A DNA stretch of 51,511 bases from an uncultured Erysipelotrichaceae bacterium (GTDB lineage: Bacteria; Bacillota_I; Bacilli_A; RFN20; CAG-826), in assembly GCA_900317165.1 (NCBI GenBank), contig ONFU01000004.1:1-51511 (forward strand), in the 5' to 3' direction. Position 1 is the stretch's first letter; the number at the start of each line of letters is the position of its first letter. Below, in pieces: positions 27,071 to 48,097 of the stretch. The notes below the pieces were generated by a model that ran no database searches, had not been told where the DNA came from, and worked only from the letters and a program-made list of their open reading frames with translations. The position numbers were made by a program, and so were the translations under genes.

Positions 27071-27451
27071 CTATTTCTCGGGGAGGATTTTCCTAATAAG
27101 ACCTCCGAAGAACATCAACGCAAGGCCACCCATCATGGCGACTGGGATAAACCATTCGTAGAACCTAAAGCCGATTAGGGCTCCAGCGAAGAAAGCGACA
27201 TAAACCAATAGATGGGCGAGGGTCGGTTTCTTCCTAAAGATTAGGTTCATCAAGGCGAAGATCGAATAAAGGAAGACAAGAAGGAAATAGATAGCCCTAA
27301 AAACGGTGACGAGAACGGAGATAACCACGTTTTCCGCGAGGATGTTTTCCCCCGTGAAAAGAACGCGGAGTTCAAAGAAAGCCATCACCCCGGAAAGAAC
27401 GAGGACGACCACAAGGCCAAGGAAGAAGAGGATATGCCCAAGAACTCTCAT
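27071..27451 (-). CDS. Small four-span membrane protein
   Basis: I do not recognise this 126-residue protein. Four hydrophobic segments are visible, near residues 5-27, 42-70, 79-95 and 100-120, with a short basic loop containing RKKP between the second and third. It starts by an ATGA overlap with the phospholipase-like gene and has a perfect GGAGGT site 6 nt upstream of its ATG, so both are made together. A role in anchoring or processing the partner enzyme is only a guess. Confidence 0.75.
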   Translation of the reverse strand: MRVLGHILFFLGLVVVLVLSGVMAFFELRVLFTGENILAENVVISVLVTVFRAIYFLLVFLYSIFALMNLIFRKKPTLAHLLVYVAFFAGALIGFRFYEWFIPVAMMGGLALMFFGGLIRKILPEK

Positions 27452-28347
27452 AGGCTACCTCCGAAGAAGGCGTCCATCATCGTGGTGGTTACGAAATCAT
27501 AAAGGACCACTCCTCTATCGACAAAAGAGGATATGTTGGTAGCAACCCAAGGGTTGATCTCCTTAGCCACGCTAGGGGCGTAGCTTGGCGGGAAGGATGA
27601 AGGCTTATATCCAGAAAGGAAATTGATTTTGAGGGCGTGCCCGGCTTCGTTGAAGCAAGCGGTGATCGTGGTCTTCTTTTCCTCTATGTCATTGACCTTA
27701 TAGGCGTCTTGGACATAGATATCGTTTGGCAAGGTAAAGGAAGTCGAATTCAGCCAACCGTTATGGCAATTGACCCCAATGGTTGGATTATGGAATCTTG
27801 ATAGCAAGATGGCTTTGCCCCTAATCGAACCTAGAGTCGCGGGAAGGACATTACCCGTATACCATTTTTCGTTGATAAATGACTTAAGGGTATTCTCGAA
27901 TTTAACGGGGTCCTTATCGCCATCTTCATCCTTAATGGAGACCAATATGCCTTCGCTAGGATGGTTATTTAGGAAGGAATCGATATCCTTGGCGATATCC
28001 GCGAAATCCCTTCTTTGATCGATGGATCCATGGACGGCTTTGAGGTTATCGCCTTCCCTTTTTAGCCTTATATCCAAAAACCTAACCCCGATATTGAGTT
28101 GATCTGTAAGGGATAGGGTTTGACATTTCCCAGCGACATTAGCAAGGGAATATAAGGCCATTGTGTTATGGGTTCCAGGAATATTAAGAGTCCTTAAAAG
28201 AGTTAGATCGTTCTTCCCTTTCATCCATTCCGCGTATTTATCGCCACAATGCTGCGACAAGACAGACGAAAAGCCGACAAATGCGGCGCCTAACGAGAGG
28301 GCAGAAACGAAAGCCCCGACGATTATTCCTTTAAGTGGTCTTCCCAT
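27448..28347 (-). CDS. PI-PLC X-domain protein, membrane-anchored or secreted
   Basis: A 299-residue protein whose N-terminal hydrophobic stretch (residues 7-30) is a signal peptide or anchor. The rest matches the bacterial phosphatidylinositol-specific phospholipase C X domain: IPGTHNT with His60, VRFLDIRL, and AVHGSID with His106, the pair of catalytic His residues of the family, followed by FLNNHPSEGILVSIKDE. The family cleaves phosphoinositides or related glycolipid head groups; the true substrate is unknown. The ribosome site is weak and a TATAAT (28359-28364, minus strand) ends only 11 nt before the ATG, so the transcript may be almost leaderless. Confidence 0.85.
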   Translation of the reverse strand: MGRPLKGIIVGAFVSALSLGAAFVGFSSVLSQHCGDKYAEWMKGKNDLTLLRTLNIPGTHNTMALYSLANVAGKCQTLSLTDQLNIGVRFLDIRLKREGDNLKAVHGSIDQRRDFADIAKDIDSFLNNHPSEGILVSIKDEDGDKDPVKFENTLKSFINEKWYTGNVLPATLGSIRGKAILLSRFHNPTIGVNCHNGWLNSTSFTLPNDIYVQDAYKVNDIEEKKTTITACFNEAGHALKINFLSGYKPSSFPPSYAPSVAKEINPWVATNISSFVDRGVVLYDFVTTTMMDAFFGGSL

Positions 28348-32103: not shown

Positions 32104-33003
32104 CTAAATGCGCGGGCCCTTTTTGATCGCGAACTCATAACGTTCCTTCATAAGGGCAAAGACTTTCTCCGCCAAAGGACGCGGAGAGATAGACGAATAA
32201 TGCTCGGACATCGCTTCGGCCACGAATTCTTCGGGAGAGGTCGAGGCGTATTCCGACAATTCTTTTTTAATGTCCTCTTTGGAAAGGCTTTTGAAGAGTT
32301 TGTCTAAAGCTACTCCAGAAGATAGACCCGTGTATTTATCTAGGGCATGTCCTAATTCATGGAAATAGACGCTTTCAAGTCCCTTGCATCCTTTTGGGTG
32401 GAAGAGGCTCCTTTCGCAGGCGAGGATGTCTTTTTGCAAGGAGGCGATCTTGCTTTCCTTAACATCCTCCTCATCGATGATGACGCATTGGAAGAGTCCC
32501 GCGTTATCAATGAAATAAGCCCAGGTCAAACCGCGGGATATATCCCCAATCATGTCCAAGGCGGTTTTCAAAAGGATTCGTCCCAAGGTCTTAAGTTCGT
32601 TCTTATCGAGAAATTCGGATAAACCGATTTTGGTTTCCTTCTTCCCGTCCATCAAATCCATCGCGAGGAATTTGAAGGAGGAAAAGGAACCGACGTAATC
32701 CATTATTCCTCTTGCGTAAGGGAAATCATAAAGGACGCAGGCCAAAGAATAGGATAAGGCTTTGGCCGCGGGAAAGGAGAAATCGTCATAATCGACCGCG
32801 GACACCAAATCGTAGGCCCTAGTTATATCCTCAAGCTCCCTGACTGTTTTGGCTTTGTCTATCTTTTCCTTTAAGGCTCCTAAAGGGGCTCTTTTTAGGA
32901 AGGTCCTATAGGATCTCCTTGCATAGGCGGATTGCTCCTTCTCATCCAAATCGACCGAAAAGGATTGACCCCCTATATTGAATTTGACGGTTAGGTTAGG
33001 CAT
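32104..33003 (-). CDS. Zincin-like metallopeptidase-type protein with HELGH
   Basis: A 299-residue cytoplasmic-looking protein with no signal peptide or membrane segment. HELGH at residues 215-219 is a typical zinc-peptidase motif, and EFVAEAMSE near residue 260 could supply the third ligand Glu. The first 200 residues have no motif I recognise. It is the last gene of the kinase-phosphatase group, 2 nt after the PP2C gene and with a weak ribosome site, so it is probably translationally coupled. It may cleave a protein controlled by the phosphorylation pair, but that is inference. Confidence 0.75.
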   Translation of the reverse strand: MPNLTVKFNIGGQSFSVDLDEKEQSAYARRSYRTFLKRAPLGALKEKIDKAKTVRELEDITRAYDLVSAVDYDDFSFPAAKALSYSLACVLYDFPYARGIMDYVGSFSSFKFLAMDLMDGKKETKIGLSEFLDKNELKTLGRILLKTALDMIGDISRGLTWAYFIDNAGLFQCVIIDEEDVKESKIASLQKDILACERSLFHPKGCKGLESVYFHELGHALDKYTGLSSGVALDKLFKSLSKEDIKKELSEYASTSPEEFVAEAMSEHYSSISPRPLAEKVFALMKERYEFAIKKGPRI

Positions 33004-33005
33004 CT

Positions 33006-34754
33006 TTATTTTCTTTCATCAAGAAGGATGGTGCATTCCTCTTCGATTGCCTCTAGCTCATCTTTAACCTTCAAAACGGCTTTTCTCGCCCCTTCGGAAA
33101 GGCGGAGCCTTAACCTAAAGGCCTCAAGGCGGCCCGAATTATAGAAGGAATCGATAACCGATGTTTCGGTTGGATGCTTGCTTAGTCCATCGATTATTTC
33201 ATCGATAACGAAATCCTGTTTGCTCTTTCCTAAGGAAACGATTTTGTCCTTATAGGAAGATAAGACGGATTTGGATTCGTTATCGACTTTCTCTACGAAA
33301 GAGGGGGCGAAGGCTTTTTCGATTGCTAAGGCAGCCTTACCGCCTTTGAAATAGAGTTCGTTTATCTTGTTGGCCTCAATACCCGCGAGGATCCTATCCT
33401 TTATCTCTTTTTCATCTTCCGGCACTTCCTTTAAGGAAAGTTTCAATATTGCTTCATAATGGATTGATGCTTCCCGTTTTGGTTTGTTTTCCCCGAAGAC
33501 CTTTCCGATATAGTCATTAGAAAGGGCGGCTTCGTTAAGGGCGTTAGCCATCGCTTTCTTCTTGGCCTCGATTGGGTCGATAAGGGTAGAGAAGAGTTTA
33601 CGAAGTTTCTTGGTAAGGGCGATATCTTCCTTCCCGGCAAGATAGGTATCGGTAAGGGCGTTAAGAATCATCGGGAACGGAGTTGGGGTGCGTTTCCTAA
33701 CATAGGATAATGCATCCGTTCTTTCCTCTTCCGATTCTCCCGCGGCTTTGATAAGAGGAAGGTTTTCGTTAAGTTTTTCAAAAAGGCCTTCGACTTTCCT
33801 CGCTAAGGGCTTCAAGGCTTTCTTAAGCGCGCGGAAATCGCGGAAACCGAAGGAATGGAGGGCGATGGTCGTATCGTCTTCCTGATAGGAAGAGATATAT
33901 TCTTCCATCATCCTTTCGCCTGTCTCTTTGCTTGGGGCGTCCTTCTTGCCGTCGCTTCTAAGGATCGAACGGGTGAGAAGATAGGTGACACCTAAGCCAT
34001 CATGGTCACCGAAAGGATCGAAGATACCATCGGACCCCGCGAAGATAAGGACGGGTTCAGCGAATTCGAAATGACGGTAATTAAGGTATGGTTCCTTACG
34101 GTTCTTGTCGAAGGCATGGAAATAGTTATTGACGTATTTCTCTTCGTCTTCATCGTCAAGGGAGAGGAAACGAAGGCCATTAGGCAATAAGCAATATGAA
34201 CGGGAATCGCCAGCCCAAACGGAATCAACGAGGAGTTTGCCTTCCTTTTCCTCATAAATAAGGGCTGCTAGGGTAGAAGGAAGGAGACATTGCTGAGCGT
34301 ATTGGCATTCTGGGAAATGGAAGGCATCAACCACGTTTTGGAGCCCCTTCTTCACGTATTTAGCGAGGGCATCACGTTGTTTTTGCTCGCTGATTGGCCC
34401 ATCAAGAAGAGTCAAACCATAGGCAAAGCGAATCGAAACGATCCTACTTGCTATAAAGGCGCTGGTCCTTGTGACCTCTCCGCCATCGGATTCGAAAATC
34501 TCGGTTAAGGCCTCCTCGATTTCCGCCTTATAGGGATTATCCTCTGGGAAATCCGAGAAAGCGGCTTTCCTTAGTTTTTCTTTCTCCCCTACTTTGAAGG
34601 TATGGGGGGTTGAACCGCTCCCGCCGAAGCCATCGGCGATAACCAATAACCCTTCTCTTCTTATCGGATGGGCATCCTCTCCTTTTTGGGGAAGATAGAA
34701 ATCGAAATCCAAATCATCGGCTTTGACGACGTTGTTCTTATAGATTAAACCCAT
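33006..34754 (-). CDS. PP2C-type Ser/Thr phosphatase with helical C-terminal extension
   Basis: A 582-residue protein. The first 290 or so residues have the PP2C metal-site motifs: VIADGFGG (Asp41), WAGDSRSY, LIFAGSDGIFD and DDTTIAL. The remaining 290 residues are charged and predicted mostly helical, with no domain I recognise. It should remove phosphate from Ser/Thr residues, most likely those written by the kinase encoded 12 nt upstream. AAAGGAG precedes the ATG. A vWA gene and a HELGH gene flank the pair. Confidence 0.85.
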   Translation of the reverse strand: MGLIYKNNVVKADDLDFDFYLPQKGEDAHPIRREGLLVIADGFGGSGSTPHTFKVGEKEKLRKAAFSDFPEDNPYKAEIEEALTEIFESDGGEVTRTSAFIASRIVSIRFAYGLTLLDGPISEQKQRDALAKYVKKGLQNVVDAFHFPECQYAQQCLLPSTLAALIYEEKEGKLLVDSVWAGDSRSYCLLPNGLRFLSLDDEDEEKYVNNYFHAFDKNRKEPYLNYRHFEFAEPVLIFAGSDGIFDPFGDHDGLGVTYLLTRSILRSDGKKDAPSKETGERMMEEYISSYQEDDTTIALHSFGFRDFRALKKALKPLARKVEGLFEKLNENLPLIKAAGESEEERTDALSYVRKRTPTPFPMILNALTDTYLAGKEDIALTKKLRKLFSTLIDPIEAKKKAMANALNEAALSNDYIGKVFGENKPKREASIHYEAILKLSLKEVPEDEKEIKDRILAGIEANKINELYFKGGKAALAIEKAFAPSFVEKVDNESKSVLSSYKDKIVSLGKSKQDFVIDEIIDGLSKHPTETSVIDSFYNSGRLEAFRLRLRLSEGARKAVLKVKDELEAIEEECTILLDERK

Positions 34755-34766
34755 AATTTCTCTCCT

Positions 34767-36332
34767 TTATTTGAGGATATAACCACTGAGAATGGCAAGC
34801 TTCGAAGTCATTTCCTGCTTTCTTCCATCCTTATAGGTAAGACGGTAATAGTTTTGGCCATCGCGCTTGAAACGTTCGATCTTCTCGATACCCCTTCTTG
34901 CAAGGTTATCCGTATTGAAGGCCTTGCCGTCTTCTGGGAATGGAGTGACTTCGCCATCGTCTCCTTTGACGGAAGCAAGGCGGGCAAAGCCTTTGGTCAA
35001 AAGCATCTTCTTGTTGATGTCATAGGATAATCCGTTGACGGAGATGCGGTAGATCTTCCTGAAAATCGAGGGGGAACGCTTGATGTATTCGACGCCCATA
35101 TCCGAAAGTTCCTTCGCGGAAAGGAATTCGATGTTATCGCCAGGATATGGTTCATCAAGCGTGATACTGACGGCTTTTTCGATTTTCTTGACTAGTCCGA
35201 GTTCCACTAGGCGATCAAAGGTCACGCTTTCGGTGACCCCTTCCTTAATTAAGGAATAGGAATGGACGGAACCTAGTTCTTCCTTATGGAAGCCTTCATA
35301 ACCCTTGGATTTGAAGACGCTTTCCCCTAAGAGGACGCCTTTGGTGGTATCTTCTTCCCAAAGGTTGAAATCAAAATAAGGTGCTTCTTCTTTTTCGACT
35401 TCCTCATCTTCATGGTATTCGCCTTCGAAAGAGGCTTTGTCTTTTAGGATTGCGATAACTTGCTCAATGGTCGGACGCTTCTTGTAATCAAGCTCAGTCA
35501 TCCCCATGAGCAAGGTATAGAAATCGACCTTATGCTTGGAACCGATTTGCATATGGGCGGCCTTATGAAAGGAGAATTCCTTGCCATAAAGCAAGGCGTT
35601 ACCGACGTCCCTTGCCCCTGTTACGGAAGGAAGCTCGCCAAAGAGGATATGATGGATGGTGATGGCAAGAGAGAAGATATCGCTAGCCTTGGTGATGGAT
35701 TTCTCATCATAGCCATCCTCGCCTTCGATATAACCAATCGCTTCAGGAGGCTGATATCCTTCGGTGCCCCCAAGGCTTTCATAATCGGGGACGTTCCCAT
35801 CGATAAAGGAATTGTCGAAATCCAAAAGCAAGGGGATGTAGGTTGACCCTTCTTTGACGAAACCGAAGTTCTGCGGTTTGAGGTCTCCGTGGATTACATC
35901 GAGGGCGTGTATCGTTTTTATGTCTTCCGCCATTGCAACGGCAAGGGCGATTTTGGAGGCGGTAGTCGGCAAAAGAAGCTTATCGAAACCAATCAACCCT
36001 TCGATAAAGGGGGTGACCGTGACGAAATAATTGCTCTCATCGACGAAATGGTCGACCTCTGGGACTATGTGGTTTTTGCTAACGGTCAAGGAAGCGAATT
36101 TCTTCTTGATCGCGGTTTGCTTATCGCGGACCTTCTTGAATTCCACGAGCTGAAGGTCATAGCTGGCTTTGGGGAGTTTTGAGGAAGGAAAACGCACGGA
36201 GATGGAGCGTTTAAGGAAATACCGGTTGCTTCCCTTTTTGGCGGTGACGAAAGTTCCGTTACCGGTCGTTTCCCAGTTTATGCCAACGCTAGAAAGCCAT
36301 TTGGGTTCGATACTATAGCCATGGTAATCCAT
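34767..36332 (-). CDS. Ser/Thr protein kinase with C-terminal repeats
   Basis: A 521-residue soluble kinase. Visible parts are a glycine-rich loop (TGNGTF), Lys41 in YFLKR, the catalytic loop HGDLKPQN (148-155; a non-RD form with Gly for Arg), DFD at 171-173 in place of DFG, GGTEGYQPPE and DIFSLAITIHHILFG. After residue 330 there is an acidic linker and then about three degenerate repeats that pair a short helix with a charged strand (LVELGLVKKIE, LSDMGVEYIKR, LARRGIEKIER). There is no membrane segment, unlike the PASTA kinases of Firmicutes. AAGGAGG precedes the ATG. A terminator separates it from the vWA gene upstream. Confidence 0.88.
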   Translation of the reverse strand: MDYHGYSIEPKWLSSVGINWETTGNGTFVTAKKGSNRYFLKRSISVRFPSSKLPKASYDLQLVEFKKVRDKQTAIKKKFASLTVSKNHIVPEVDHFVDESNYFVTVTPFIEGLIGFDKLLLPTTASKIALAVAMAEDIKTIHALDVIHGDLKPQNFGFVKEGSTYIPLLLDFDNSFIDGNVPDYESLGGTEGYQPPEAIGYIEGEDGYDEKSITKASDIFSLAITIHHILFGELPSVTGARDVGNALLYGKEFSFHKAAHMQIGSKHKVDFYTLLMGMTELDYKKRPTIEQVIAILKDKASFEGEYHEDEEVEKEEAPYFDFNLWEEDTTKGVLLGESVFKSKGYEGFHKEELGSVHSYSLIKEGVTESVTFDRLVELGLVKKIEKAVSITLDEPYPGDNIEFLSAKELSDMGVEYIKRSPSIFRKIYRISVNGLSYDINKKMLLTKGFARLASVKGDDGEVTPFPEDGKAFNTDNLARRGIEKIERFKRDGQNYYRLTYKDGRKQEMTSKLAILSGYILK

Positions 36333-36354
36333 ACGGTTACCCTCCTTATCTAAT

Positions 36355-36390
36355 CAAAAATAAAGCCCCGCGTCATAAAGCCCGCGGGGC
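36355..36390 (-). terminator. Terminator between the vWA and kinase genes
   Basis: On the minus strand GCCCCGCG (36390-36383) pairs with CGCGGGGC (36372-36365), followed by a TTTATTTTT run. The kinase start follows only 22 nt later, so either read-through feeds the kinase or this is an attenuator. Confidence 0.85.
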
Positions 36391-36403
36391 AATTTGAATA
36401 ATC

Positions 36404-37093
36404 TTACCTACCGACTGAAGCGGCGACGAGCTTAACGATCTCATTGAAGTCGACGTCGTTTAGGCCACGGCCCGATTCAACCGCTTTAAAGATGGAACCA
36501 GGAAGCATGCCGGCGAGTTCTTCGTAGAAGGTGCCCTTCGGAGCGAAGATGACAAGCCTCTTGTTCCTCTTTTGGAGCTTGATGGAAGGATCTTGGACGG
36601 CGCAGTTCCAAACATTGATGAGGCCATCGAGATCGACCATGTCCTCTGGATAATCCGGAGAGGAGGCGCGAGATTTTAATGGAAGGGCGTCGGCGTCGGT
36701 GAACAAGACGGTGACCTGACGGTCCTTGGCTCCGACGTTCCAATCGGATTTGAAGGCATAATAGAGGGATTCGAGTCCGTTTTCGGGAGCGTCTCCGCCT
36801 CCGCTAGCGGAAATGCCATCTAACCAAGAACGGAAGAGGTCGTTATCAAGCGGAAGCTCGAAGAATGGGGATTCGACCATCGAATCCTTGCCATCGTCCT
36901 CATAATCGCGGAAGACAATTACGCGGACACGGACGCTATCGATATCAGAGCCGATATCGACGAGGGCGTTGATGAGGTCTTGGTGGAAACGGACCGCGCC
37001 TTCCTTAACGTTTTCGATGACCGGGACCATCGATCCGGTTCCATCGATGCAGAAAACGACGTCGGCGTTTCTTTTGGTGATATTTTCAGCCAT
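36404..37093 (-). CDS. vWA-domain protein (TerY-like)
   Basis: A 229-residue protein that is almost entirely one von Willebrand factor A domain. The metal-ion site shows as FCIDGTGSM (Asp17, Thr19, Ser21), with a later GGGDAPE and VLFTDADA. vWA proteins usually assemble complexes by metal-dependent binding. The kinase and PP2C genes downstream make the combination similar to the TerY-kinase-PP2C triads described around tellurite-resistance systems, though no Ter gene is present here. A perfect AGGAGGAAAG site precedes the ATG. Confidence 0.85.
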   Translation of the reverse strand: MAENITKRNADVVFCIDGTGSMVPVIENVKEGAVRFHQDLINALVDIGSDIDSVRVRVIVFRDYEDDGKDSMVESPFFELPLDNDLFRSWLDGISASGGGDAPENGLESLYYAFKSDWNVGAKDRQVTVLFTDADALPLKSRASSPDYPEDMVDLDGLINVWNCAVQDPSIKLQKRNKRLVIFAPKGTFYEELAGMLPGSIFKAVESGRGLNDVDFNEIVKLVAASVGR

Positions 37094-41092: not shown

Positions 41093-41480
41093 AAGGGATA
41101 GGGATGATTTCGGCTTTGATCCTTTTTAGGTGGGGACGCTTCTTCATCTTGTCGTAAGAAGAAAGGAATTTCTCCGCTTCGGGATAGCCTACCTCTTCGA
41201 TTAAGAAGAACCTCTCATTGTATCTTTCATTGAAAAACGATGTAACGTATGCCCTATTTTCCAAAGCGGTCAAAGCCCCGGAGACCGCCTTACGGCTAAC
41301 CACGGAATAGCAGCCAAACATCTTGAATTCGGAAAATTCCATATATTCCTCGCTTCCAAGAAGAAGCTTCCTGATGCCGGAATTGCATGGGCAAACGCCC
41401 TGCTCCTTCAATTCGAAAAGCAAGGACAATACCTTTAGCTGAAACTTATTGAGCTTCGCGGGCTTTCTTTTTCTAGCCAT
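41091..41480 (-). CDS. Winged-helix-like protein in the TraG-like ATPase operon
   Basis: A 129-residue basic protein. Helices around KLNKFQLKVLSLLFEL and SRKAVSGALTALENRAYV, followed by a beta hairpin (TSFFNERYNERFFLIEE), suggest a winged helix. Two Cys residues (CPC) lie near residues 34-36. Its start shares one base with the ATPase stop (TAATG), so it is translated with that gene. DNA binding or regulation of the operon is likely but not shown. I know no close family. Confidence 0.65.
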   Translation of the reverse strand: MARKRKPAKLNKFQLKVLSLLFELKEQGVCPCNSGIRKLLLGSEEYMEFSEFKMFGCYSVVSRKAVSGALTALENRAYVTSFFNERYNERFFLIEEVGYPEAEKFLSSYDKMKKRPHLKRIKAEIIPIP

Positions 41481-43051
41481 TAGAACAATCCATCGTAACG
41501 GCCGCGTTTGGTCGTTTGTTCCTCGTTCACGCTATTTCCATCGCCATAAGTCTGGATAAGTTGCGGATAAGGCATATTGGCAACGTTCTTCACGACGTTG
41601 AAATAGACGATCTTCCCTGAAGTTGTCGGAAGCTCAAGGGGCTCGCCACCCACGAATTGCTCATAACGGGAGATATCGGGAAGGAAAGTCATGTAAGGCT
41701 TCGAACGGGAGATGAGGATAAGGGCTTCAGCCCCTCCTTCTTCGCCCCAAGCCTTCTTGAGGTTAGTAAGTTCAAAGAAGGAAATAAGGGGTTCGCTTCC
41801 AGGAATCTTGGTATAGGTACCGACCATAGTCTGAACTTGCTGAATAAGATCGTTTTCCTTACTTGCAAGGTAAACCCAGTTAAGGCAGTTGGTCTTGATG
41901 GTTTCGGCCTCATTCCCGTAATTGATCTTGAGCTGGTTATCGCTTTGGACGACCAGGTAGAAACGGACGTTGCGGCTTCTACCCGCGGTGATCATCGAAG
42001 CCATATCGGAAATGCGCGGGATGTTCGCGAATTCATCGAGGAGGAAATTGAGCCTTCTTGGAAGGGCGCCACCACATTTGAAGGCGTCTTCGATGGCCGC
42101 GGAATAAAGTTGCTTGATAAAGGAAGCGATGAAGAAATGGAAGGTTGTCGATTCATCAGGAACCAAAACGAAGACCGCGACTTTCTTCTTGGGGTCTTTG
42201 AAGGCATGGATATCGATGGTGCTACGCGCGGAAATCTTCTGCAAAGACTTAGAGGAAACGAATGGTTGGAGTCCGCTAGAGACCAAACCGAGGATGCCGC
42301 TCATGGTATTGGGGGCGTTGCAAACGGTGGTCTCCATATGCTGACGGATGGAATTGCTTGGAGGGAGTTTGGTCACGAAATCCCTTAAGACGGAGTCGCT
42401 GCTACTTCCGCCTCCTCCTCTAGTGAAGGAAACGAAGGAAAGGACGCTAGCCATGTTGCATTCTTCGACCTTCTTGGAGCCGCGAATTACCGTTTCGACA
42501 CAGCCTTCGATGAATTGTTTCGCCGCGGCTGGCCAGAAGATATCGTTCGTGGTCTTCATATGAGGATCCATCAAGGAAGCGACGAAATCCATGGCCCGTT
42601 TCAAGGATTCCTCCGTGTTGCCTTCCTGATAAAGGCGGAAGCATTCATCAAGGGGATTCCAGGAATCCGAACGGGACATGTCACGAAGATTGAGGACCTT
42701 GACCTCATATCCTTTGCTCTTAAGGAAGGAACTAGAGGCATCGTAAATCTCGCCTTTTGGGTCGGTGATGACCATGTTCTCGCCCGCTAATCCAAGGGTA
42801 AAGACGGTTGGCATAATGAATAGCCTCGTCTTCATCGAACCAGTCGAGCCTAGGATGAGGGTATGGTAATCGCCATCATCGACATAGGCTTCCTTGGTAT
42901 CGGAGATGAAGGCCGCGCCGCCATGGTTAAGCTCGATATCCTTGGTGAGGTCGACGCGGTTGAGGATCGACTTGATTTCCTCTTCGGAGGCGAAACGGTT
43001 GAGGAAACTCCTATCGCCCGTATATTTTCTGAATCTATAGCTCTTGCTCAT
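41480..43051 (-). CDS. TraG/VirD4-like ATPase lacking a membrane anchor
   Basis: A 523-residue P-loop ATPase of the type IV coupling-protein kind. Walker A is GSTGSMKT (68-75), with Met where Gly is usual; VITDPKGEIYD is at 94-104; Walker B LLDEFANIPRISD begins at 336; VVQSDNQL follows near 367. Such ATPases normally have two N-terminal membrane helices and pump DNA or protein into a secretion channel. This one begins directly with a soluble, charged N-terminus. No relaxase, VirB4 ATPase or pilus gene is in the window. It lies 2 nt after the 290-residue gene and is coupled to the winged-helix gene. The cargo, if any, is unknown. Confidence 0.85.
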   Translation of the reverse strand: MSKSYRFRKYTGDRSFLNRFASEEEIKSILNRVDLTKDIELNHGGAAFISDTKEAYVDDGDYHTLILGSTGSMKTRLFIMPTVFTLGLAGENMVITDPKGEIYDASSSFLKSKGYEVKVLNLRDMSRSDSWNPLDECFRLYQEGNTEESLKRAMDFVASLMDPHMKTTNDIFWPAAAKQFIEGCVETVIRGSKKVEECNMASVLSFVSFTRGGGGSSSDSVLRDFVTKLPPSNSIRQHMETTVCNAPNTMSGILGLVSSGLQPFVSSKSLQKISARSTIDIHAFKDPKKKVAVFVLVPDESTTFHFFIASFIKQLYSAAIEDAFKCGGALPRRLNFLLDEFANIPRISDMASMITAGRSRNVRFYLVVQSDNQLKINYGNEAETIKTNCLNWVYLASKENDLIQQVQTMVGTYTKIPGSEPLISFFELTNLKKAWGEEGGAEALILISRSKPYMTFLPDISRYEQFVGGEPLELPTTSGKIVYFNVVKNVANMPYPQLIQTYGDGNSVNEEQTTKRGRYDGLF

Positions 43052-43053
43052 AT

Positions 43054-43926
43054 CTATTCCCCCACGAGTCCCATGTAGTAACGTTTCTTATCGACGAAAT
43101 CTAGGAGCCATTTGCCTCCTTCGAGGAATGGCTTAAGGGCTTCCTTGGTAACGGTAGTCTTGAGTTCGCCCTCGTTCTTATAGGCGTTATAGACGATATC
43201 CTCGGCAAGTTGATGCATGGTCCAAGGGCCTTCATGGCCTTTGGTGTTCAAGATGGCCTTAAGGGTTGGGATAATCGCTTGTTTGGCCTCCTTATCCAAG
43301 GAAAAGCCAAAAGAGGAAAGTTCTTTCTCAAGGACATTCAAAGCGACTTTGGGGTCTTCGAGGACGAGGCGAAGCTTCTCTAGCCTCGTCTTGGTGATAA
43401 GAAGGCGGTAAGCCAAATCGGCCTTAGACGGGGACCCGCTCATATCGACATAGATCGCGAGGGTCCTTTCATCGACCTCCGACATATAATGAAGGAAATC
43501 GAGGAATTTCTTCTCGCTCGTCGCTGAACGCACCACCCAATCGGTGATATCGATGACGAGGATCCCGCTATAGGCGTGATTAAACCTCGCAAGGTATTTC
43601 TCGACCGCATCGTAAAGGGCGGTGAAGGCCGGAAAATCGGGGGCATTCGGCATCGAATAATCAAGGCTAAGCTCATAATGCCTTACCGGTCCTGAGAATT
43701 TCATCAACCCGTAATGGTCAAGAAGTTCCTCAAGAGATAAAAGGATCGTTTCGAAGTCATAGCCTTCGTTAGTGGAAAGGAAGAGGTTAGGCAAAACCAA
43801 AGAACCGCCGGAAGCGAGCTTCTTTTCCCCGATCCTCTCCAAGGTCGTCGCGAGGTCTTGAAGGCTTTCAAACCCCGGCTCCTTCGCTAAGGCTAGGAGC
43901 TTGTTTTCGAATTTTCGTTCAATCAT
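43054..43926 (-). CDS. Unknown 290-residue protein of the TraG-like operon
   Basis: A soluble protein with no motif I recognise. The middle (about residues 110-185) looks alpha/beta, with strands such as YSGILVIDITDWVV and RTLAIYVDMSGS; the C-terminal third is helical and ends in a winged-helix-like stretch (MHQLAEDIVYNAYKNEGELKTTVTKEALKPFL). I chose the second ATG, at 43926, because GGGAGG lies 6 nt before it while the first ATG directly abuts that site. It overlaps the end of the 1192-residue gene by 8 nt. The close coupling suggests a complex with the ATPase or the large protein. Confidence 0.7.
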   Translation of the reverse strand: MIERKFENKLLALAKEPGFESLQDLATTLERIGEKKLASGGSLVLPNLFLSTNEGYDFETILLSLEELLDHYGLMKFSGPVRHYELSLDYSMPNAPDFPAFTALYDAVEKYLARFNHAYSGILVIDITDWVVRSATSEKKFLDFLHYMSEVDERTLAIYVDMSGSPSKADLAYRLLITKTRLEKLRLVLEDPKVALNVLEKELSSFGFSLDKEAKQAIIPTLKAILNTKGHEGPWTMHQLAEDIVYNAYKNEGELKTTVTKEALKPFLEGGKWLLDFVDKKRYYMGLVGE

Positions 43927-46900
43927 CGTCATCCTCCCGTAATTGGATATTCTCTAATAGTTGATTAATTCTTGCTGGCGATTCCTCAAGGAAATAGTCA
44001 TCTTTGTGACGGACATCCTTATAGAAGATATATAAATCGCCAACTAAGTAATCCTCCGAATCCTCGGATGGGGTCGCTATCGTGTATGTTCGACCGAAGC
44101 CGTATATCTTCCCTACCTCGAGGAACCTAACTTTTTTCTTACCGAATTCATAAAAGAATTTCTCATTATCGCGATGGGTTAAGGTAAACGAATTGATAAG
44201 GTCGCTTTGGTCGATTTCGCCTAGAGCGCTACAGGCTTTATAGAAAACGGGGTAATCGGGATTCCTATATGAAGGCTCAATCCTTCTCGCGTTTATCGGT
44301 ACCTCGCGGACACACACTTTTTTCGCGGCCATGGCAATCTGATTCCATTGTTGTGGGGCCATCGCAAAGGCGAAATCCCCTAAAGCGTTTAGCGCGTTAT
44401 GTTCTTCTATGGACCCAAGCCTAAACGCTTCGAATTCGCCCCTAAGAGAAGCGAAGAAAAGCGACTTTTCGAAGCCAGTCAAAGGAAGGAGGATGTCCGT
44501 AAACCGATAATAATAGGCACCCATGCAAGAAGGGAAATCGTTCAAGCGGTATGGGGCGGCCTCCTCGATTTGAAGATAGGCGCTTTCGATTTTGCAAATA
44601 AGCTCGAATATTTGGTTGTCCTCGATTATCTTTCCTAAATCCTCGTCTTCAAGGCAAAGCAAGCAATGGAGCAAGGCCGAGAAATAGGAAGAAAGGACGG
44701 TGCTATCAAGCGCGGTTCCATTCTTAAACGAATTGAAGACATCGGCTGAGACGGGGAGTTTGGAAACGCCAAGGTTTTCTTCCTTAAGTAGTCCCGCTTC
44801 CTTGAATTTATGGGCAATGAAGCGGCTTGCGATATTAGAGAAAGGATAAACCGCGGTTAAGGAAAGTAAGCCCTCCTTATCCTTATCAAAAGAAGCGAAG
44901 GCTTGTTTAAACGCCTCAATCCCGTTTGTTCCTTGATCGGAATGGATGAAACGCCCATTTTCGATAAAGGTTTTTTCATCGAATGAGGATGCGCCGTCAA
45001 GGAGGTTGACAAGGTTTCTTTCATCAGCCAAAAGGATACCCGCGAACAAAGGGGAGAGGATGATATTTGGGTATTCTTTCTTCAATTTGATGTAACGGGG
45101 TTCCTCTTCGCTTAAACAGGATCCTAGGAAAGAAGATTCCTCAAGGTTTGACGACCTTTCGCCAGAATCCAAAAGGGTCGCTACTTCATCTATCAGTTCT
45201 TTGGTGACGTCAAGGCCCTTTTCTCCGATTTCCTGATTCAAGGAAAGCATATCGAGAATAGCAACGGCCTCGCCGCGAGGATCAAGAAGCTCGAGTTGCT
45301 CCTTGACGGAAAGACTGAGGAAGGCCTTATCTAAACCAAGGATATTCCAAGCCTCCATCCTCAGATAGGGGAAATCCGTTTTCCTTGAAATGTCATAACT
45401 ATACAAAGCCGCCCTCACCTTTTGGAGGTTTTCGAGTTTGTTGAGTTCTTTATCGATAAAAGGCAAGACGCGGCATAGCCTTAATCCCAATCTATAGGAG
45501 ACGTTCGCCCATTGGAAACGGAAGGTCTTCCCTTTGAATCCTTCCCCATCATCCATATATTCAGTATTCAAGGCGTTCAATAATTCGTTCGGGGAATGGA
45601 AAGAGGAGGCCTCCAAAACCAAGAAGCCCATACCATCTTCTCCTTCGATCCTTAAGATATCGTTAATTCCGATGCCTTTTATCGACTCATCCTTTTCGCC
45701 CAAGATGAGGAATGTTTGGGTAAATGGATTGACCTCCATTTTGTTTCTCCATAAAGAAGAAGGAATATGGATTTCCTCTTTTTTATCGAAAAATAGATGC
45801 AGGCCCCTCCTATTTGCCTCATAGACGAAAGTGGAGAATTCGTTTTGGGAAAGGCTATATTCCTCCACTACTTCTTTGACGTTGATTTCCTTTGATTCTC
45901 TAGCCTTATCGAAAGCCTCTTGGTAATTGGTCTTTTTGATGTCATCGAGAAGGCCATAATCAAAGAGGAAGGCCAACCCCATGCAGAAATCAGAGAAGAC
46001 GATATCCTTCTCGCCAATTTTATCGTAACCGTTGATGTCTTTAGGCGCGAAGGATTTCACAAGCTGATCGAAAGGAACGAGGAGGTCGCTTTTCTTCTCC
46101 CAGTTTTCGAAATTGTAGAAAAAGTTCCTTAAGGCCCAACAATCATGTTCGAAGGAGGCGAACCTCTTCATCAAGCAATCCTTCGTGTAGCATTCCCTGA
46201 TTTCCCGATAAACAAGGTTGCCATCGACGTGTGATTTATTGGATAAAGCCGCGTGGACCAAGGGGCTACCGGATTTAGCGAATAAAGCAGAGGAAATATC
46301 CTCTATTGGGGAGGAATCCAAAACCTTCTTGTAGAGTAAGGGTGACCTAGAGGGAGCTAGATAATGGAAATCGTCGGAGAAACCGATATGGGGGATCGGC
46401 GATTCATGCCCACCCATAGGAATTGCGATATCTTGGATCGTCTTATCCCAGGTCCCTAGATAATAGGCGGCCTTCTCCATCATGGAATCCTTTGGCGAGA
46501 GGAAAAGGGAATCCGCGAATGGGCTTTGGAGGCCGATTACGGTGACTGGGAAGCCTAGTTCCTTGGAAAGCGATTCCTCCATATAGGCATAGGAGGTTGG
46601 ACGAGGGATAAGGATATAGAGCCTCCTCACCTCATCGATATACCTCATTTCGTTGAGGAAGTCCCATAAGCGGTTGTTCTCATCCGCTAAATAGACGACA
46701 ACATGGTCTTCTCTCATGTCGTCGCAATCGCCGATACGGAAGCGAATTAGCGAGGACATGTATTCGTTATGCTTTAAAGCCTCGAAATAACGATTGATGT
46801 TAAAAGTGAAGAAAACGTCCTCATCGACGAATAGATCCATCGGCTTATCGAAGCCCTTCATGGAGGAAGCGACACCCTTCATTACGTCAACGACATCCTC

Positions 46901-47497
46901 GTTGGCCCCGCAAATGTGGAAGGTCTCCCCATTAAATCCTCTTTCAAAACAGTCCTTGATTAAGGCTGATACGGTGAATTGGACCGCGGACCTACGGAAG
47001 ATATGGTATTTGATTCCAACTTTATTAACGATTTGCACATCGCTTGAATAATTCGGTTGCTCTTCCACGACATAGATATAGACGTTCGCGGTTTTTCTAA
47101 TCCTTGGGAGATTTCCGAGAATCATATCCCTCGCTTCTTTGGCTTCTTCGGTCTGAGGGGAAGGGAAGAAGACGATGGCTTCGTCTTTTTTGCTGACCCT
47201 CAATAGCCTGCCGAATTCCTCAAGAGGATAATTTTCCTCATTTCCTTCTTTGCATAAAGGAATGTATTCGGCGTCGAGGAGCCCTTCTTTGTCTATTTTG
47301 GCCAAGGACAAAAGGAACGGAAGTGCTTCCTCAGCCTCGCCGATAATGAAAATGTCGCGGTCTTTGGCTGCGCTTAAATCATAAAAACGCGTTTCTTCAA
47401 CATAGTTGAGTTCGTTGATGATAGCGTCTGCGCGGTCAGCCTCAAAATAGGCGTCGCCTTCATCGATATCAGCTGGGTTGAGGTGGAAATATCGCAT
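43919..47497 (-). CDS. Very large unknown protein (1192 residues) downstream of clpP
   Basis: A soluble protein with no signal peptide or clear membrane helix. The first 380 or so residues look like two or three alternating beta/alpha units of Rossmann type (RDIFIIGEAEEALPFLLSLA, ETFHICGANEDVVDVMKGVA, RRLYILIPRPTSYAY), somewhat like the RCK or TrkA-N units of ion-channel regulators. The middle and C-terminal parts are mostly helical and acidic, without known motifs, and the end is DDDD. It starts 3 nt after the clpP stop, with AAGGAT as ribosome site, and is followed by the 290-residue protein and the TraG-like ATPase. It is the core unknown of this operon. I assign no function. Confidence 0.7.
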   Translation of the reverse strand: MRYFHLNPADIDEGDAYFEADRADAIINELNYVEETRFYDLSAAKDRDIFIIGEAEEALPFLLSLAKIDKEGLLDAEYIPLCKEGNEENYPLEEFGRLLRVSKKDEAIVFFPSPQTEEAKEARDMILGNLPRIRKTANVYIYVVEEQPNYSSDVQIVNKVGIKYHIFRRSAVQFTVSALIKDCFERGFNGETFHICGANEDVVDVMKGVASSMKGFDKPMDLFVDEDVFFTFNINRYFEALKHNEYMSSLIRFRIGDCDDMREDHVVVYLADENNRLWDFLNEMRYIDEVRRLYILIPRPTSYAYMEESLSKELGFPVTVIGLQSPFADSLFLSPKDSMMEKAAYYLGTWDKTIQDIAIPMGGHESPIPHIGFSDDFHYLAPSRSPLLYKKVLDSSPIEDISSALFAKSGSPLVHAALSNKSHVDGNLVYREIRECYTKDCLMKRFASFEHDCWALRNFFYNFENWEKKSDLLVPFDQLVKSFAPKDINGYDKIGEKDIVFSDFCMGLAFLFDYGLLDDIKKTNYQEAFDKARESKEINVKEVVEEYSLSQNEFSTFVYEANRRGLHLFFDKKEEIHIPSSLWRNKMEVNPFTQTFLILGEKDESIKGIGINDILRIEGEDGMGFLVLEASSFHSPNELLNALNTEYMDDGEGFKGKTFRFQWANVSYRLGLRLCRVLPFIDKELNKLENLQKVRAALYSYDISRKTDFPYLRMEAWNILGLDKAFLSLSVKEQLELLDPRGEAVAILDMLSLNQEIGEKGLDVTKELIDEVATLLDSGERSSNLEESSFLGSCLSEEEPRYIKLKKEYPNIILSPLFAGILLADERNLVNLLDGASSFDEKTFIENGRFIHSDQGTNGIEAFKQAFASFDKDKEGLLSLTAVYPFSNIASRFIAHKFKEAGLLKEENLGVSKLPVSADVFNSFKNGTALDSTVLSSYFSALLHCLLCLEDEDLGKIIEDNQIFELICKIESAYLQIEEAAPYRLNDFPSCMGAYYYRFTDILLPLTGFEKSLFFASLRGEFEAFRLGSIEEHNALNALGDFAFAMAPQQWNQIAMAAKKVCVREVPINARRIEPSYRNPDYPVFYKACSALGEIDQSDLINSFTLTHRDNEKFFYEFGKKKVRFLEVGKIYGFGRTYTIATPSEDSEDYLVGDLYIFYKDVRHKDDYFLEESPARINQLLENIQLREDDDD

Positions 47498-47500
47498 GCT

Positions 47501-48097
47501 TTATCCTTCGACTTTGCCGGTTTTACCGCTTTGGATGACCTTATCGGCCAAACCCATCGCAATGGCTTCTTCGGGATCGAGGTAATTATCCTTTTCGCAA
47601 GCGATATGGATTTCATCGAGGCTCTTGCCGGAAGCGTCGGAAAGGATGGTCTCGAGTTTGCGTCTGGTGTTGCTCATCTCTTCGGCGATGCCGACGAGAT
47701 CGGTTTCCTTTAGCCCGGAGATGGAAGCGTTGCTCCAAGGTTGGTGAATCATAAGCTCGCTATGGGCGGTCATGTAACGGTGGCCTTTTTCGCCGGAAGC
47801 GAAGATGACAGCGGCCATTGAGGCGGCGATGCCATAGCAAACGGTGTAAATAGGCGATTTCACGAGGGCCATGTTATCGACAATCGTCAAACCAGCCGTG
47901 ACGGAACCGCCGCCGGAATTGATATAAAGATAGATGGGGTCATTGGATTGCTGGTCCATATGGCGGAGCAACAGCATGACTTTGAGGGCAAGGTCATCCG
48001 AAATCGCTTCGGCGATGACAATGTTCCTTTGGTTTTGAAATTCCTCCATTATCTCACCCGAAAGAATCGGGAACGACAAACCTTTGACTTCTTCCAT
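47501..48097 (-). CDS. clpP: ClpP-family serine protease
   Basis: A 198-residue ClpP-like peptidase. The catalytic triad is Ser93 in GIAASMAAV, His118 in MIHQPW and Asp170 in CEKDNYLDPEEA; YINSGGGSVTAG is also typical. The N-terminal 30 residues differ from the usual ClpP start. ClpP normally forms a barrel fed by a Clp ATPase, but no ClpX, ClpA or ClpC gene is nearby, and instead an unknown 1192-residue gene follows in the same operon. GGAAGG precedes the ATG. A TATAAA at 48142-48147 (minus strand) is a possible -10 box. Housekeeping ClpP or a second copy dedicated to this operon: the sequence alone does not decide. Confidence 0.88.
   Translation of the reverse strand: MEEVKGLSFPILSGEIMEEFQNQRNIVIAEAISDDLALKVMLLLRHMDQQSNDPIYLYINSGGGSVTAGLTIVDNMALVKSPIYTVCYGIAASMAAVIFASGEKGHRYMTAHSELMIHQPWSNASISGLKETDLVGIAEEMSNTRRKLETILSDASGKSLDEIHIACEKDNYLDPEEAIAMGLADKVIQSGKTGKVEG

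What the first reader, a model, noticed from the sequence alone, without database searches (positions are those of the whole stretch)
32104..37093. vWA, kinase, PP2C and HELGH protein module close to the TraG-like operon
A writer, an eraser and a metal-dependent scaffold in one cluster match the TerY-type phosphorylation triads and the threonine phosphorylation control of type VI secretion by analogy. Here the fourth member is a HELGH zincin, and no ter or T6SS gene is present. The nearby ClpP and TraG-like operon on the same strand could be the controlled machine.
Basis: partly seen in the sequence, partly recalled or inferred. Interest (0 to 1): 0.65.

Follow-up and report, generated by a model that had tools for sequence, protein, structure and literature searches.

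The report
Phospho-switch operon with lethal-factor-fold protease
A gut bacterium carries a conserved four-gene cassette (a metal-binding scaffold, a protein kinase, a matching phosphatase and a zinc protease) that resembles the TerY-P anti-phage and stress switches, with the protease as a long-standing partner not described in the papers I could search.

Summary
They are more than chance. A vWA search of 84,980 species found 61 loci (Clostridia, Lachnospiraceae, spirochaetes, cyanobacteria); 54 hold the complete triad. Catalytic residues are nearly invariant. With vWA-kinase-PP2C gene order a zincin is present in 17 of 22 loci; in the 32 loci of other order it is never present, and 9 carry a transglutaminase-like gene instead. 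On the kinase tree the zincin has one origin. Its model matches the catalytic domain of anthrax lethal factor and the Pro-Pro endopeptidases. Relatives carry TerD, YbjN, AAA+/FtsH-like, TIR-LRR and DUF4231 genes nearby.

So this is a TerY-P-like phospho-switch with a protease partner, probably a stress or phage-defence cassette. It is not filed as TerY-P proper: the kinase lacks the zinc ribbon and ends in three ~60-residue repeats that match no Pfam family.

The proposed link to the ClpP/TraG/1192-residue cluster fails (2 of 146 family genomes; beside none of 63 triad loci). The T6SS analogy has no support. Substrates, trigger and phenotype are unknown. New variant of a known kind.

The parts
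36404..37093 (-). vWA-domain protein, 229 aa; MIDAS residues D17, T19, S21, D133
   Evidence: D17 81/81, T19 81/81, S21 79/81, D133 79/81 in homologous vWAs
36356..36390 (-). terminator-like GC-rich hairpin plus T tail between vWA and kinase; may let vWA be made in excess
   Evidence: sequence; present in the sister species L035 and folds in both; not listed by the consensus scan
34767..36332 (-). Ser/Thr protein kinase, 521 aa, active-site residues intact (K41, HGDLKPQN, DFD)
   Evidence: Pfam PF00069 E 1e-16; H148, D150, N155, D171 in 61/61, K41 59/61, K152 57/61; model pLDDT 88 with a kinase fold
34776..35366 (-). three ~60-aa repeats in the kinase C-terminus (residues 323-384, 393-451, 463-519), possible docking domain, no Pfam match
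   Evidence: secondary structure; 38 kinase-labelled ORFs carry one to three copies by a profile built from them, and the same repeat occurs at the N-terminus of one PP2C, L052
33006..34754 (-). PP2C-type phosphatase (about residues 1-305) with a long C-terminal extension, 582 aa
   Evidence: homologues match PF13672; E26, D27, D41, G42, D183, D242, D293 conserved in 57-59 of 59
32104..33003 (-). cytosolic-looking zincin metallopeptidase, 299 aa, HELGH at residues 215-219 (32347-32361); lethal-factor/PPEP catalytic fold
   Evidence: HExGH and E259/E263/E267 invariant in 17 of 17; model pLDDT 89.5; LF catalytic domain Z 11.8, 3.7-4.0 A over 181-184 residues; PPEP-1 Z 8.6

Best explanation
It is a TerY-P-like protein-phosphorylation switch with a protease output. 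The vWA protein, through its metal-dependent peptide-binding (MIDAS) site, holds the kinase, the phosphatase and a client together. Kinase and PP2C set the phosphorylation state of a shared target. On a trigger (phage infection or envelope/metal stress), the changed phosphorylation frees or redirects the lethal-factor-fold zincin, which cuts one or a few intracellular proteins. In related cassettes a transglutaminase-like Cys-His-Asp protein or other accessory genes fill the output role. Shown: gene content, intact active sites, operon-like spacing, conservation, single origin of the zincin partnership, fold of the zincin model. Inferred: that the four proteins form one pathway, that the zincin is the output rather than a regulator, and that the purpose is defence or stress response.
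For: Complete triad in 54 of 61 vWA loci. Zincin in 17 of 22 vWA-kinase-PP2C loci and 0 of 32 others; transglutaminase in 0 of 22 and 9 of 32. Zincin label needs one change on the 59-kinase tree (support 100/98; shuffled mean 7.7). Catalytic residues near-invariant in kinase, PP2C, vWA, zincin and transglutaminase. Purifying selection in all four genes. TerD near the triad in 5 of 61 loci plus G200. In the order, 2 of 4 triad genomes have TerD against 2 of 275 others. Relatives carry TIR-LRR genes 63-98 bp after the zincin in L043, L044, L045, plus YbjN, AAA+/M41 and DUF4231 genes. Patchy spread: strong vWA hits in 4 of 279 order genomes, and the same-genus copies W and G200 lie on long separate branches. 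Published TerY-P and TerY-P-like triads protect against phages (passages read in PMC11090510, PMC10889362, PMC7699616).
Against: No phenotype, trigger or substrate is known for this cassette. Three loci of the same gene order with at least 3 kb covered on both sides (L046, L050, L054) lack a zincin, so it is dispensable there. The window has no defence or mobility gene next to the cassette among the proteins scanned, and its own genome has no TerD match. Defence-gene content around the loci was tallied but not compared with a background. The loci were found with vWA patterns from three sequences, so the sample is not even. Related loci are not independent; the zincin association is one origin, not many.
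Confidence: 0.5

Rival explanations
1. The zincin is a regulator inside the switch, not the output: it trims the kinase, phosphatase or vWA protein (or a phosphorylated anti-factor) to turn signalling on or off, and the effector lies elsewhere in the genome.
For: The zincin is encoded directly after PP2C with a 2-bp gap and moves to just upstream of vWA in L055, L056 and L058, i.e. it stays with the switch while the wider neighbours change. Some loci add separate candidate effectors such as TIR-LRR after the zincin.
Against: No cleavage site or substrate could be tested; three loci keep the switch without a zincin.
Confidence: 0.25
2. The cassette is a metal- or envelope-stress response module of the Ter type with no role against phages.
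For: TerD association; in G200 the triad is flanked by a ZnuA-type zinc-uptake operon and a Fur-like gene before TerD; the zincin and vWA both bind metal by family.
Against: TIR-LRR and DUF4231 neighbours in other loci point to conflict systems; the metal-transport neighbours were seen in one genome only.
Confidence: 0.2
3. The module controls the neighbouring ClpP/1192-residue/TraG-like cluster.
For: Both clusters are on the same strand 4-11 kb apart and are kept in the same order, across a contig break, in the sister species.
Against: 1192-aa protein in 2 of 146 family genomes, 0 of 63 triad loci have the 1192-aa, 292-aa or ClpP proteins; other genes lie between on both strands.
Confidence: 0.03

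Closest known systems
TerY-P triad and TerY-P-like anti-phage systems (Anantharaman 2012 and Gao 2020, as cited in passages of PMC11090510 and PMC7699616; P. aeruginosa variant in passages of PMC10889362)
   Same: vWA + PP2C + Ser/Thr kinase encoded together; duplicated vWA genes in several loci; TerD in some relatives
   Different: kinase C-terminus has three unnamed repeats instead of a zinc ribbon or (in the Gao type) an OB-fold; a zincin (or transglutaminase) is a fourth member; no plasmid gene annotated terY among the hits at E up to 10
Kinase/PP2C/vWA genes linked to GAP1-N2 GTPase conflict systems (passage of PMC7159879)
   Same: active kinase, often with zinc ribbon and beta-rich domain, PP2C and standalone vWA as neighbours
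   Different: described there for actinobacteria with GTPases; no GTPase system seen beside this cassette
Anthrax lethal factor / Pro-Pro endopeptidase (ATLF, M34-like) peptidases
   Same: catalytic fold and HExxH with downstream glutamates; the lethal-factor-like peptidase is also known as a toxin domain of bacterial polymorphic toxins (passage of PMC3482391)
   Different: 13-17% identity; sub-threshold for PF07737; own N-terminal ~130 residues; no signal peptide recognised by eye; encoded with a kinase/phosphatase switch rather than delivered as a toxin
MADS kinase MAD6
   Same: best PADLOC kinase hit (E 3.5e-15)
   Different: 50.4 bits against a cut-off of 460 in NCBIfam; none of the other three module proteins matches any PADLOC family at E up to 1

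Membership tests
TerY-P triad | vWA protein with MIDAS motif | tested here: met
TerY-P triad | vWA belongs to the TerY subfamily | tested here: inconclusive
   no TerY reference sequence was at hand; no plasmid gene annotated terY among 26 hits at E up to 10
TerY-P triad | PP2C phosphatase with metal-binding residues | tested here: met
TerY-P triad | Ser/Thr kinase | tested here: met
TerY-P triad | three genes encoded together | tested here: met
   54 of 61 loci
TerY-P triad | kinase C-terminal zinc ribbon | tested here: not met
   residues 320-521 have no Pfam hit at E up to 5 and no cysteine; three repeats instead
TerY-P-like anti-phage module (Gao type) | kinase C-terminal OB-fold | tested here: inconclusive
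   model shows three helix-strand repeats; they were not searched as a separate model
TerY-P-like anti-phage module (Gao type) | protects against phage | not testable with these tools
   needs a plaque assay
ATLF / lethal-factor-like peptidase (PF07737) | Pfam gathering score | tested here: not met
   20.7 vs 27.4 bits
ATLF / lethal-factor-like peptidase (PF07737) | HExxH catalytic motif and catalytic fold | tested here: met
T6SS threonine-phosphorylation control | T6SS structural genes nearby | tested here: not met
   none among 15 window proteins scanned with Pfam
MADS | MAD6 equivalog score | tested here: not met
   50.4 vs 460 bits

The most novel reading that the evidence does not exclude
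A phosphorylation switch made of vWA, kinase and PP2C controls a lethal-factor-fold protease that acts inside its own cell as an immune effector, and swaps that protease for a transglutaminase-fold or TIR effector in sister cassettes. A fold known from toxins that cut host signalling proteins would here be under the command of the bacterium's own signalling kinase.
Probability: 0.3. Interest if true: 0.75.

Novelty: new variant of a known kind. Interest (0 to 1): 0.52.

Why it matters
How TerY-P triads act is open: the passages seen here propose control of protein phosphorylation but name no output. A variant that carries a conserved protease right after the phosphatase gives a concrete candidate output with a measurable activity, and comparison with the transglutaminase and TIR variants offers a way to find what the switch controls. 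It also places lethal-factor-type peptidases in a cell-internal signalling setting.

Tried and rejected
Link to ClpP/TraG/1192-aa cluster: rejected. T6SS: no gene found. Phage or prophage carriage: no relative of the vWA in viral contigs; three weak zincin-domain matches only; three records in the phage collection, one of them an unverified faecal contig with a PP2C-kinase-vWA set. Empty-site test: the flanking ABC genes and endonuclease I have relatives in the genus but not next to each other, so no empty site could be shown. Defence-island test: tallies on 97 of 119 listed neighbour proteins of the vWA-kinase-PP2C loci and 91 of 148 listed neighbours of the others; the lists were shortened to stay under the residue limit and no background set was scanned, so no enrichment is claimed. 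mad3 was matched by 5 of 97 and mad8 by 2 of 97. Fold search of the kinase returned only kinases among the rows shown, so the repeats remain unassigned. Foldseek gave no PDB match at E below 0.001 for the zincin; the fold call rests on VIA-align Z 11.8, the sub-threshold profile hits and the motif. In the viral library the best zincin matches were MuF-like or minor capsid proteins (E 1.2e-5). Distant zincin-profile hits without a triad exist (G065, G081, G133, G161, G168, G188; E 5e-4 to 3e-12; four of these regions read); they match only part of the profile and were not counted as the same family. A stronger one, G076 (E 8e-36), sits at a contig end with an in-frame stop and no vWA hit in that genome. 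The first gene map dropped real genes under long opposite-strand ORFs; later counts use six-frame fragments. In the tree the zincin label of L058 was set by hand; one search finds it at E 2e-114.

Rows dropped before counts: L035/L037 and L034/L072 are copies of one locus each. The 61-locus count includes L037 (the sister genome) and L072 once. The kinase tree leaves out L037. The 7 incomplete loci are L057, L063, L067, L094, L095, L096, L097; L057, L067, L094, L095 and L096 have their vWA within about 1.4 kb of a contig end, L063 and L097 do not. Of the 5 vWA-kinase-PP2C loci without a zincin, L042 and L052 are not covered on the downstream side.
Full report
What is there. Four intact genes lie on the minus strand of the window in the order vWA (37093-36404), Ser/Thr kinase (36332-34767), PP2C (34754-33006) and zincin (33003-32104), with gaps of 71, 12 and 2 bp. 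A terminator-like hairpin sits in the first gap, in this genome and in its sister species. Its effect is inferred: more vWA than the rest. The window lies in a 1.66-Mb, 84%-complete genome.

Domain evidence. Pfam finds the vWA and kinase over their cut-offs, the zincin only under threshold, and nothing in the window's PP2C. The PP2C call rests on homologues: L089 matches PP2C_2 over the cut-off and L039 just under it, and the metal-binding positions D27, D41, D183, D242 and D293 are kept in 58 or 59 of 59 sequences. Kinase H148, D150, N155 and D171 are kept in 61 of 61; K41 in 59 and K152 in 57. vWA MIDAS residues D17, T19, S21 and D133 are kept in 79 to 81 of 81. The motif names are recalled knowledge.

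A conserved system, not a chance cluster. In the order, strong vWA matches occur in 4 of 279 genomes: own, sister G109, G038 of another genus, and G200 of the same genus; four further hits are weak (E 5e-7 to 1e-5) and were not counted. A scan of 84,980 species genomes gave 61 loci. Of these, 54 hold the full triad on scanning all six frames. Gene order is vWA-kinase-PP2C in 22, vWA-PP2C-kinase in 26 and PP2C-kinase-vWA in 6. The sample comes from vWA patterns built on three sequences, so it is not an even census.

The fourth gene. A zincin is present in 17 of the 22 loci of the first order and in none of the other 32; a transglutaminase-like gene is present in none of the 22 and in 9 of the 32. 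Fisher's p for the zincin split is 6e-10, but related loci are not independent. On a tree of 59 kinases the zincin rows, set against the transglutaminase rows, need a single change (support 100/98), so the partnership most simply arose once and was kept. Of the five first-order loci without a zincin, two are not covered downstream and three (L046, L050, L054) seem really to lack it within at least 3 kb on each side. Zincins are 26-34% identical to the window's, and 16 of them form 12 clusters at 70%. All 17 aligned keep HExGH and three downstream glutamates. The nine transglutaminase-like proteins keep Cys, His and Asp, and the one scanned matches Transglut_core just under its cut-off (20.5 vs 23 bits).

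Structure. The zincin model (pLDDT 89.5) aligns to the lethal-factor catalytic region at Z 11.8 over 181-184 residues (3.7-4.0 A) and to PPEP-1 at Z 8.6. Foldseek itself found no PDB match below E 0.001. The kinase model (pLDDT 88.2) has a kinase fold followed by three repeats at residues 323-384, 393-451 and 463-519. No Pfam family matches them. The same repeat occurs twice at the N-terminus of one PP2C, in L052.

Company. TerD genes lie near the triad in 5 of 61 loci, all of the second order, and 3.1 kb from it in G200, with a ZnuA-type transporter and a Fur-like gene between (Fur by eye). In the order, 2 of the 4 triad genomes have TerD against 2 of 275 others (p 9e-4 by Fisher, small numbers). 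In G038 the TerD gene is on another contig, not beside the triad. The own genome has none. In other loci the neighbours include TIR-LRR genes directly after the zincin (L043, L044, L045), YbjN, AAA+ proteins (one of two scanned with an M41 peptidase domain), DUF4231 and a helix-turn-helix gene. Background rates were not measured.

Mobility. The cassette is patchy in the order. The same-genus copies in the window and G200 sit on long separate branches of the kinase tree and in different surroundings. Triads occur on a Herpetosiphon plasmid and a Calothrix plasmid. They were not found in viral contigs. Gain by transfer is inferred.

The proposed controlled machine. The 1192-aa protein is found in 2 of 146 family genomes, own and sister, and beside none of 63 triad loci; TraG gave one 24% hit. 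It differs from the cassette in evolving faster (dN/dS 0.13 against 0.01-0.08). I reject the link.

Known relatives. Passages in PMC11090510 describe TerY-P as a TerY-like vWA, a PP2C and a kinase with a C-terminal zinc ribbon, and report TerY-P-like modules with an OB-fold kinase as stand-alone antiphage systems. PMC10889362 (passages) shows a P. aeruginosa TerY-P variant protecting cells. PMC7159879 (passages) describes kinase, PP2C and vWA genes beside GTPase conflict systems. PMC3482391 (passages) lists lethal-factor-like peptidases as toxin domains. PMC4978471 (passages) reports a TerY-P island in Helicobacter. I saw no mention of a zincin as a TerY-P partner in the searches; the two founding papers (2012, 2020) were not among the papers these searches listed, and I did not read them.

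Mechanism and verdict. Most likely the triad is a phospho-switch whose output, in this branch, is the zincin. I hold that at 0.5. A regulator role for the zincin is at 0.25 and a metal-stress role without phage defence at 0.2. It is a new variant of a known kind: it works like TerY-P but fails the zinc-ribbon test for membership.

Noticed in passing
window 41480-48097: Lone VirD4/TraG-like ATPase (CD1115 family), 292-aa and 1192-aa orphans and a ClpP-like gene form their own cluster; the 1192-aa protein is found only here and in the sister (87% identical) and evolves faster than its neighbours.
   Followed up: partly
window 36356-36390: Terminator-like hairpin between the vWA and kinase genes, kept in the sister species; fits higher dosage of vWA, which is also duplicated or triplicated in many other loci.
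   Followed up: partly
L136 1-2780: A 12-kb faecal record labelled 'Bacteriophage sp.' (unverified) carries a PP2C-kinase-vWA triad; either phage-borne or a mislabelled bacterial contig.
   Followed up: no
L052 13077-16673: PP2C homologue of at least 1199 aa with two copies of the kinase repeat at its N-terminus, suggesting the repeat is a shared docking domain of the system.
   Followed up: partly
L117 4758-5555: A zincin of the same family at a contig end in G076 with an in-frame TGA and no vWA hit in that genome; possibly decayed or on a contig break.
   Followed up: no
L043 13398-15209, L044 13721-14803, L045 13398-15251: TIR domain fused to BspA-type leucine-rich repeats directly downstream of the zincin.
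   Followed up: partly
L074, L075, L078 upstream of vWA: Large AAA+ proteins of 1148-1167 aa (M41 FtsH-type peptidase domain confirmed in L074) preceding a YbjN-like gene and the vWA.
   Followed up: partly
window 27448-28347: PI-PLC X-domain protein (PF00388) near the ABC transporter pair.
   Followed up: no
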